Shown: positions 42,234-44,014 of the stretch, piece by piece
Layout of the letters: each line of letters starts with the position of its first letter
Numbering within the stretch: the first letter of the stretch is position 1
From: Actinomycetes bacterium
GTDB lineage: Bacteria > Actinomycetota > Actinomycetes > Mycobacteriales > Mycobacteriaceae
Direction of reading: 5' to 3'
Length of the DNA: 64,000 nucleotides
NCBI GenBank assembly: GCA_029780675.1
Contig: JAKOYE010000204.1
Span: 1-64,000 of the forward strand
The notes under the pieces: generated by a model
What the model saw: only the letters and a program-made list of their open reading frames with translations
What the model was told of the DNA's origin: nothing
Database searches by the model: none
Made by a program: the position numbers and the translations under genes

Positions 42234-42271
42234 GCAGGCCAGGGGCGAAATACCCCCTGGCCTGCTTCTTT
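42234..42271 (+). terminator. Rho-independent terminator after nrdE
   Basis: gcaggccagggg - loop - cccctggcctgc followed by ttcttt. Confidence 0.85.
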
Positions 42272-42297
42272 ATCCGATGGCGAGCCCGCTCAAGGAA

Positions 42298-42325
42298 TGC
42301 ACAGTTAGATTGATCTATCTGTGCA
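42298..42325. promoter_or_regulatory. 28-bp near-perfect palindrome, putative autoregulatory operator
   Basis: tgcacagttagat-tg-atctatctgtgca (13-bp arms, one mismatch). Confidence 0.6.
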
Positions 42326-42345
42326 TCGGGCCTACGATCGTGCTC

Positions 42346-43020
42346 GTGTCCGAAACTCTCACCATCGATCCGGCGTGCACCTCCGAAGCCGAGTGGATAG
42401 TCATCCTCCGCGATCGGTTCAACGCGGCAAAGGCTGCCGGTGAGGTCGTCGACATCAGTACTCGGATCGAAACCTTCAGCCCTTCTGAAGTGGCCAGGCG
42501 CCTCGGGTTGGACCGTTCGACGATCAGCCGCAAAATTAAGGCAGGGGAGATCGAGGCGATCCGGGTCGGAGCCCACCACCGCATTACCCGTCGGGAGTTT
42601 GAACGCTTCCGTGACGGGCTGGCGCCTGACCCGTCGTTCACCTATCGGGATTTCGTCGACATTGTCTCCGGCGGCGAAGATTGGCATTTCGCCGCGCGGC
42701 AGCTCCGGGAATTGGTGATCCGCAGCAAGCGCGCCGGGTCGGTGGAGGCGGTCGATGCGATCCATCGCGACCCGGGATTGACCGGAATTCGCGGCTGGGA
42801 CGCCATCGTCGGTGGGGTGGCGCACCTGACCGGACGCGACCGCGTTTCCGGCTCCGCTCTCCTCGACTGGTGCTTCGAACCGGAAAGATATTGCCCGAGC
42901 GTTATTTTCGACCCATTTGGTGTACCCACGAAGTATTTCTGGATCGACTATCTGCGCACCCCGATCGAGTTACGAGTGCGCAATGTGCTGTATCCCGCGG
43001 GGAACCTGGAAGGAGTCTGA
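42346..43020 (+). CDS. HTH (excisionase/MerR-like) DNA-binding protein, putative antitoxin
   Basis: FSPSEVARRLGLDRSTISRKIKAGEIEAIRVGAHHRITRREFERF. Confidence 0.7.
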   Translation: MSETLTIDPACTSEAEWIVILRDRFNAAKAAGEVVDISTRIETFSPSEVARRLGLDRSTISRKIKAGEIEAIRVGAHHRITRREFERFRDGLAPDPSFTYRDFVDIVSGGEDWHFAARQLRELVIRSKRAGSVEAVDAIHRDPGLTGIRGWDAIVGGVAHLTGRDRVSGSALLDWCFEPERYCPSVIFDPFGVPTKYFWIDYLRTPIELRVRNVLYPAGNLEGV

Positions 43021-43024
43021 GGCG

Positions 43025-43552
43025 GTGTTCAGGAGGGAATTCACCGCCGATCAGATGCGCGATCTGCTGGCCGAACTCGATGCGGAACTTCAGCGTGTCG
43101 GCAAAGCCGCCATCATCTTCGTCGTCGGGGGCGCGGCGATGGCGCTGGCCTACAACGCCGAGTGTGCTTCTGCCGACATCGATGGAACGTTCGAGCCCCG
43201 AGACGTGGTGTTGGACGCCGCGGCTGTTGTCGCCCGTCGCTTCAACCTCGACAGGAACTGGCTCAGTGACGGTGTCCGGGACTTCATGCCGCCGGTGCCC
43301 GATGACCACCCTCGTGGGGAGCGGATCGGTCCGGCGCTTGTCATCGAGATCGCCTCTCCTGAGTACGTGTTGGCGATGAAGTCGATGACCAGCCGTAAGT
43401 CCGATGGCGATCTCATCGACGCGGTCGATCTCTGCAGGATGTTGGGCATCGAGGATGAGGCTGCGCTGGAAGCTGTTGTGCGCCGGTACTTTCCCGAAGG
43501 AGCTTTCGGAACCCAGGAACTGTTCTTTGAACGGATCATCGACGCCCTGTGA
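43025..43552 (+). CDS. nucleotidyltransferase-fold (DUF6036/AbiEii-like) protein, putative toxin
   Basis: VVGGAAMALAYNAECASADIDGTFEP; starts 4 bp after the HTH gene stop. Confidence 0.7.
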   Translation: MFRREFTADQMRDLLAELDAELQRVGKAAIIFVVGGAAMALAYNAECASADIDGTFEPRDVVLDAAAVVARRFNLDRNWLSDGVRDFMPPVPDDHPRGERIGPALVIEIASPEYVLAMKSMTSRKSDGDLIDAVDLCRMLGIEDEAALEAVVRRYFPEGAFGTQELFFERIIDAL

Positions 43553-43627: not shown

Positions 43628-44014
43628 TTACCGTTTGCGGGCCTTATCGGCCTGCGACGCCTTGAGCCTGCGCTTCTCCTGCAGCACCGCCTGGTAGCTC
43701 TCACGTTCGGCGATCAGCCATTCCGGCTTGTCCGCCAGCAGCGCGTCGATCTGTGCGGTGGTCAGCGGATCGACCACGCCGCCGCGTGCCAGACCGGAGA
43801 TCGAGACGCCAAGTTTGGCCGCCACGAGATTTTTCGGATGCGGGCCGTTCATGCGGAGGTCGATGAGCCACTGCGGCGGATCGGCCGATAGCGCGGCCAA
43901 TTCGGCCCGGGTGATGGAGTTCTCCCGGAACTCGGCCGGGGTTGCGGGCAGGTACACGTCCAGCTTCTTGGCCGCCGTGGCGGGCTTCATGGACTGTGCG
44001 TCAGGCCTGCTCAT
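43628..44014 (-). CDS. DUF5997-like protein
   Basis: MKPATAAKKLDVYLPATPAEFRE...LAALSADPPQWLIDLRMNGPHPKNLVAAKLGVSISGLARGG. Confidence 0.75.
   Translation of the reverse strand: MSRPDAQSMKPATAAKKLDVYLPATPAEFRENSITRAELAALSADPPQWLIDLRMNGPHPKNLVAAKLGVSISGLARGGVVDPLTTAQIDALLADKPEWLIAERESYQAVLQEKRRLKASQADKARKR

What the first reader, a model, noticed from the sequence alone, without database searches (positions are those of the whole stretch)
42298..43552. Putative toxin-antitoxin cassette behind a 28-bp palindrome between nrdE and the downstream accessory genes
Sequence: a near-perfect palindrome (tgcacagttagat-tg-atctatctgtgca) lies 20 bp before an HTH gene; 4 bp after it begins a nucleotidyltransferase-fold gene (GGAAMALAY…ADIDG). 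The block follows the strong nrdE terminator and appears less GC-rich in parts. Established: nucleotidyltransferase toxins with HTH antitoxins (AbiEii/MenT families) exist in mycobacteria. Inference: an autoregulated TA or defence module with a divergent antitoxin C-terminal domain.
Basis: partly seen in the sequence, partly recalled or inferred. Interest (0 to 1): 0.62.

Follow-up and report, generated by a model that had tools for sequence, protein, structure and literature searches.

The report
Nucleotidyltransferase toxin-antitoxin cassette with own operator
Two coupled genes in a mycobacterial genome form what looks like a mobile poison-and-antidote cassette: a transferase-type toxin related to the tuberculosis MenT toxins, held in check by an antidote of a previously uncharacterised family that carries its own DNA switch.

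Summary
A near-perfect 30-bp palindrome (42297-42326) precedes an HTH gene (GTG 42346-43020), followed 4 bp later by a nucleotidyltransferase-fold gene (43025-43552). Comparative evidence supports a toxin-antitoxin module. Nearly all of 80 genome relatives carry the same two-gene order, usually overlapping by 4 nt. The proteins co-diverge (Mantel r 0.86) and are fused in both orders elsewhere. About ten loci keep the antitoxin with a broken toxin; none keeps a full toxin without an antitoxin, except where sequence is missing. MenT1 active-site residues T39/D41/K137/D152 align with S49/D51/K119/D132, conserved in 73/73 (S or T at 49). The palindrome recurs before all four HTH_17-fused orthologues, in different genomic contexts, and nowhere else in this genome; it sits over the -35 region of a probably leaderless promoter. 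Relatives lack the cassette between nrdE and DUF5997. It is not AbiE or MenAT by definition: the toxin is DUF6036 and the antitoxin C-terminal domain matches no curated family. Best read as a new variant of NTase toxin-antitoxin system, widespread in Actinomycetota and on plasmids. Toxicity and target (tRNA ends, by analogy) are untested; this copy has Cys47 where 68/73 have Arg, so it could be attenuated.

The parts
42234..42265 (+). intrinsic terminator of nrdE (flank of the cassette)
   Evidence: 12-bp perfect stem, 8-nt loop, T-rich tail
42297..42326 (.). operator-like palindrome, core TGCACA-N16-TGTGCA
   Evidence: 14-bp arms, 1 mismatch; same 28-bp layout before gene 1 in L047, L048, L049; only site in the genome at up to 3 mismatches, none in 400 other family genomes at up to 1
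42333..42338 (+). probable -10 element TACGAT; transcript predicted to begin at or next to the GTG (leaderless)
   Evidence: TANNNT at the same position in the orthologues, 6-7 nt before the start codon; inference. The sigma-70 consensus scan found no promoter
42346..43020 (+). gene 1, antitoxin and repressor: N-terminal strand-helix-strand, HTH_17/excisionase domain (aa 44-89), C-terminal antitoxin domain (about aa 98-224)
   Evidence: Pfam HTH_17 1.3e-10, TIGR01764 4.1e-11; AF2 pLDDT 87; C-domain one family, hhalign prob 99, E 3.8e-18
43025..43552 (+). gene 2, nucleotidyltransferase toxin of the DUF6036 family; active-site residues S49, D51, D53, K119, D129, D132
   Evidence: Pfam DUF6036 at 0.0044 (sub-threshold alone) but 73/73 family members match; AF2 pLDDT 95; profile finds MenT1 8AN4 at 0.0015
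43628..44014 (-). DUF5997 gene, right flank of the cassette; directly next to nrdE in relatives without the cassette
   Evidence: Pfam 1.2e-48; adjacency in L137, L151

Best explanation
The block is a mobile two-gene toxin-antitoxin cassette. Gene 2 encodes a DNA-polymerase-beta-fold nucleotidyltransferase toxin (DUF6036) that most likely adds nucleotides to an RNA target, by analogy with MenT the 3' end of tRNA, and stops translation. Gene 1 encodes a modular antitoxin. Its C-terminal domain probably binds the toxin next to its active site; it might also, as MenA does, drive phosphorylation of the hydroxyl residue two positions before the catalytic Asp (S49). Its N-terminal HTH_17 part probably binds the palindrome as a dimer over the -35 region and represses a leaderless transcript, with the two genes translationally coupled. 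Shown by sequence comparison: conserved pairing, co-divergence, fusion in both orders, loss polarity, conserved active site, operator travelling with the HTH version, and the empty site in relatives. Inferred: toxicity, neutralisation, tRNA target, binding to the operator.
For: Pairing: among 80 genome loci plus plasmid, family and phylum loci, 104 locus records hold both domains in full (includes a few repeats of one locus). In an unselected draw of 297 phylum genomes, 20 of 21 strong toxin hits have the antitoxin domain directly upstream and the other is a broken toxin. Coupling: 38 of 81 pairs overlap by 4 nt, 11 by 1 nt; distances co-vary, Mantel r 0.865 against a permutation maximum of 0.15. 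Fusion: M. kansasii plasmid protein HTH-antitoxin-toxin in one chain (L015) and toxin-antitoxin in one open frame (L008). Polarity: about ten loci keep the antitoxin with a toxin broken or lost (L007, L011, L012, L106, L112, L173/L197, L196, L198, L200, L213); the two with a full toxin and incomplete antitoxin are one with unread bases and one at a contig edge. Active site: D51, K119, R124, D129, D132 73/73, S/T49 73/73, D53 70/73, matching MenT1 T39, D41, K137, D152 (PMC11375011). Operator. Mobility: empty site in L137 and L151; 26 plasmid records; GC3 lower than neighbours.
Against: No toxicity or binding data were found for any member. Foldseek match of the toxin model to MenT1 is weak (prob 0.6, TM 0.43, E 0.35), and the antitoxin C-domain has no PDB match, so the mode of inhibition is unknown. 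The window toxin has Cys47 where 68/73 have Arg; the matching MenT3 R76 contacts the nucleotide phosphates in simulations (PMC11375011), so this copy may be weak or inactive. The polarity counts are small and some breaks may be assembly errors. Many relatives lack any detected HTH, so autoregulation through this palindrome can hold only for the HTH_17 group of four.
Confidence: 0.82

Rival explanations
1. Reversed roles: the nucleotidyltransferase is the antitoxin and gene 1 carries the toxin, as in MNT-HEPN systems, where a minimal nucleotidyltransferase modifies and silences a HEPN RNase.
For: Nucleotidyltransferases are antitoxins in MNT-HEPN systems, which also occur in mycobacteria (PMC13284704). 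Gene 1's C-domain is mostly helical.
Against: Loss polarity is opposite: gene 1 is kept while gene 2 is broken in about ten loci, and a full gene 2 is never clearly kept without gene 1. No conserved HEPN motif (R-x4-6-H in only 26 of 81 and not at conserved columns), no MNT-type GS motif (0 of 81), and no Pfam HEPN match.
Confidence: 0.06
2. A type IV-like AbiE mode: antitoxin and toxin do not touch, and the antitoxin acts on the toxin's target.
For: Same two-domain antitoxin layout, N-terminal HTH for repression and C-terminal antitoxin domain, as described for AbiE (PMC3985639).
Against: Both-order fusions and strong co-divergence suggest direct contact. The antitoxin C-domain is not COG5340.
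Confidence: 0.15
3. An ordinary accessory enzyme with its own regulator: a nucleotidyltransferase modifying a small molecule (like ANT(2''), which the fold resembles about as well) under control of an HTH repressor.
For: Foldseek gives ANT(2'')-Ia scores similar to MenT1.
Against: A regulator would not be needed in most relatives, where gene 1 has no detected HTH yet is always present; it would not explain loss polarity or fusions. The best PDB profile match is MenT1, and 52/73 members match Pfam AbiEii.
Confidence: 0.08
4. The window copy is a decaying cassette whose toxin is no longer active because of the Cys47 change (compatible with the main explanation for the family, not exclusive of it).
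For: Cys47 is unique among 73; orthologues L047-L050 have Arg.
Against: Both frames are intact, the operator is intact, and all catalytic acids and the Lys are kept.
Confidence: 0.2

Closest known systems
MenAT (MenT1/MenA1 Rv0078A-Rv0078B, MenT3/MenA3 Rv1045-Rv1044) of M. tuberculosis
   Same: Nucleotidyltransferase toxin as second gene; T/S-x-D, Lys and D-x-x-D active-site residues align; MenT1 is the best PDB profile match.
   Different: Toxin is DUF6036, not DUF1814; antitoxin is neither COG5340 (MenA3/4) nor the short MenA1; fold match weak.
AbiE (AbiEi/AbiEii), type IV toxin-antitoxin and phage-abortive-infection system
   Same: Antitoxin with N-terminal HTH and C-terminal antitoxin domain; inverted-repeat operator; NTase toxin with GG...DxD and DxxD motifs (PMC3985639).
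   Different: Antitoxin C-domain unrelated to AbiEi by Pfam/NCBIfam; in the window toxin the motif-II Arg and the positive residue before DxxD are replaced (C47, G128).
HTH_17/excisionase-type antitoxins of PIN-domain toxins in actinobacteria
   Same: The HTH half of gene 1 is alike; several such genes precede genes that look like PIN toxins (L026, L028, L032, L039, L041).
   Different: Here joined to the DUF6036-partner domain and followed by an NTase, not a PIN nuclease.
MNT-HEPN systems
   Same: A nucleotidyltransferase in a two-gene module.
   Different: Opposite loss polarity and no HEPN or MNT motifs.

Membership tests
DUF6036 nucleotidyltransferase family (PF19502) | match to the Pfam model at its gathering score | tested here: inconclusive
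   Window protein 17.3 bits against a cut-off of 23.6; all 73 aligned relatives match at E up to 0.01, best 2e-10; NCBI names close relatives DUF6036
Nucleotidyltransferase (pol-beta) fold toxins | hG[G/S]...DhD motif and distal Lys/Asp | tested here: met
   G36, D51, K119, D129, D132 in 73/73; D53 70/73
AbiE | AbiEii/DUF1814 toxin | tested here: not met
   Window protein has no AbiEii match at E up to 1 in Pfam or PADLOC; 52/73 relatives match Pfam AbiEii, best 4e-8
AbiE | COG5340 antitoxin C-terminal domain | tested here: not met
   Only the HTH resembles AbiEi_4 (E 0.001); no AbiEi C-domain match in 73 members
MenAT | MenT1 catalytic and phosphorylated residues T39, D41, K137, D152 | tested here: met
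   S49, D51, K119, D132, by profile alignment to 8AN4 and family counts
MenAT | structural match to MenT | tested here: inconclusive
   Foldseek prob 0.35-0.60, TM 0.36-0.43, E 0.3-0.5
MenAT | DUF1814 toxin with COG5340 or MenA1-type antitoxin | tested here: not met
   Toxin is DUF6036; antitoxin C-domain has no match
MenAT | nucleotide addition to tRNA 3' end | not testable with these tools
   needs biochemistry
Toxin-antitoxin module (general) | coupled pair, found on mobile replicons, antitoxin first, toxin not retained without antitoxin | tested here: met
Toxin-antitoxin module (general) | growth inhibition by toxin, relief by antitoxin | not testable with these tools
MNT-HEPN | HEPN R-x4-6-H motif and MNT GS motif | tested here: not met
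   26/81 scattered and 0/81; no HEPN match in Pfam

The most novel reading that the evidence does not exclude
Probability: 0.3. Interest if true: 0.7.

Novelty: new variant of a known kind. Interest (0 to 1): 0.52.

Why it matters
Both partners are annotated as unknown (DUF6036; hypothetical protein), and no paper in the open library names DUF6036 or PF19502. The comparative data turn them into a defined, testable toxin-antitoxin family related to the tuberculosis MenT toxins but with an unrelated antitoxin domain. The Ser/Thr two residues before the catalytic Asp, kept in 73/73, lets one ask whether antitoxin-induced autophosphorylation is a general rule of these toxins or a MenA invention. 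The separable HTH and antitoxin domains, and single-chain fusions, are a natural series for studying how antitoxins acquire autoregulation.

Tried and rejected
Direct family searches of gene 2 alone (NCBIfam, PHROGs, PADLOC, PDB by single sequence) gave nothing useful; the profile of 73 relatives was needed. Relatives in viral contigs and phages: none, so no evidence of phage carriage. Rfam: no RNA in the block, so an RNA antitoxin is not suggested. Sigma-70 scan: no promoter; the -10 assignment rests on orthologue comparison. Palindrome as a chance repeat: possible by symmetry alone (0.4 expected per 64 kb), rejected because of conservation. Palindrome in HTH-less relatives: absent, as expected if it is the HTH's site. 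A search for separate XRE genes just upstream of HTH-less pairs, with a crude profile, gave no hits. The coding start at ATG 42277 (palindrome inside the ORF) was rejected because orthologues start at the position of GTG 42346.

Full report
OBSERVATION. The features are present as described. The palindrome spans 42297-42326 (14-bp arms, one mismatch, 2-bp centre). Its symmetry alone is modest evidence: a few other inverted repeats in the window score as well or better, and about 0.4 of this quality is expected by base composition. Gene 1 is best started at GTG 42346, gene 2 at GTG 43025, with 4 bp between them. The nrdE terminator stem is 42234-42265. Genes 1 and 2 have GC 61.6% and GC3 73-74%, against 80-91% GC3 in neighbours.

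DOMAINS. Gene 1 has an HTH_17/excisionase domain (aa 44-89; E 1e-10) and a C-terminal half with no match in Pfam, NCBIfam, PHROGs, PADLOC or PDB. Gene 2 alone gives only a sub-threshold DUF6036 match, but with relatives the assignment is firm: all 73 aligned members match DUF6036 and 52 match AbiEii. The family profile's best PDB match is MenT1 of M. tuberculosis (8AN4, E 0.0015). The AF2 model of gene 2 is confident (pLDDT 95), though Foldseek finds only weak pol-beta-superfamily matches, MenT1 and ANT(2'') among them.

RELATIVES. Relatives were found in Mycobacterium, Gordonia, Rhodococcus and many other Actinomycetota, single MAGs labelled Thermoflexus and Fimbriimonadales, a Brevibacillus plasmid, and 26 plasmid records in all. 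Gene 2 is preceded by a gene with the same C-terminal domain almost everywhere. The near and distant versions of that domain are one family (hhalign prob 99, E 3.8e-18), with nearly invariant R118, P143, G147, D152, W175 and P206. The N-terminal part varies: HTH_17 in the window and L047-L049 only, XRE-type HTH in about 13 of 73, none detected in most others. The HTH half of gene 1 itself resembles antitoxins that precede PIN-like genes (PIN identity judged by eye from the sequences), so gene 1 looks like a domain recombinant.

POLARITY AND CONTACT. In an unselected sample of 297 phylum genomes, 20 of 21 strong toxin hits lie directly behind the antitoxin domain; the exception is a broken toxin. 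Across all loci, 104 records have both domains complete, about ten have a complete antitoxin with a broken or missing toxin, and none has a complete toxin with a truly missing antitoxin. This asymmetry is what toxin-antitoxin addiction predicts, and it speaks against the reversed MNT-HEPN arrangement. The two proteins co-diverge (Mantel r 0.865), and they occur fused as antitoxin-toxin (L015) and as toxin-antitoxin (L008), which suggests direct contact.

ACTIVE SITE. MenT1 T39, D41, K137 and D152, shown in the literature to matter for activity or phosphorylation (PMC11375011, PMC10435456), align with S49, D51, K119 and D132 here; these are conserved in 73/73 (69 Thr and 4 Ser at 49). The window copy has Cys47 where 68 of 73 have Arg; the corresponding MenT3 R76 contacts the nucleotide phosphates in simulations. 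Its three nearest orthologues have Arg. Whether the window toxin is fully active is therefore open.

OPERATOR. The 28-bp core TGCACA[CG]TT[AG]-N8-TATCTGTGCA stands just before gene 1 in all four HTH_17-fused members and in none of the roughly 90 other loci scanned. It occurs once in the 4.03-Mb assembly at up to 3 mismatches and in none of 400 other family genomes at up to 1 mismatch. The nrdE and DUF5997 flanks of the window are absent from the other three loci, so the site travels with the HTH gene. It is followed by TANNNT 6-7 nt before the start codon in each (TACGAT 42333-42338 here), which implies a leaderless transcript, common for mycobacterial toxin-antitoxin genes (PMC8485053 abstract), with the operator covering the -35 region. 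Binding is inferred.

MOBILITY. In relatives L137 and L151 nrdE and the DUF5997 gene are next to each other without the cassette; here 1.41 kb lies between them. No integrase or transposase lies in the block.

COMPARISON. By layout and proposed mechanism the module works like AbiE/MenAT. It is not filed as either: the toxin is DUF6036 rather than DUF1814, and the antitoxin is not COG5340 or MenA1-like. No paper in the open library mentions DUF6036 or PF19502; subscription papers and preprints could not be searched. Verdict: a new variant of a known kind, well supported as a toxin-antitoxin module by comparison, with function and target still to be tested.

Noticed in passing
L015:2431-3507 (M. 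kansasii pMK12478; similar DUF6036 hits on M. avium/intracellulare plasmids): Single 359-aa protein with HTH-like start, the antitoxin domain and the DUF6036 toxin in one chain; annotated only as DUF6036 nucleotidyltransferase.
   Followed up: partly
L008, minus strand, open frame of the toxin hit: One open frame holds the toxin domain first and the antitoxin domain after it, the reverse order of the usual operon.
   Followed up: partly
window:42216-43627 and L130, L150-L152, L155: The stretch between nrdE and DUF5997 differs among relatives (36 bp to about 1 kb; a small ORF in L150 and L152, a long inverted repeat in L151), suggesting a recurrent insertion site.
   Followed up: partly
window:43025-43549, residue 47: Cys where 68 of 73 members have Arg; the nearest orthologues all have Arg.
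   Followed up: partly
L056-L058: Micrococcales MAG pairs form an intermediate group between the mycobacterial and the wider antitoxin domains.
   Followed up: no
L022, L023: Genes with two tandem HTH-like repeats resembling the HTH of gene 1 and no neighbouring toxin gene found in the stretch held.
   Followed up: no
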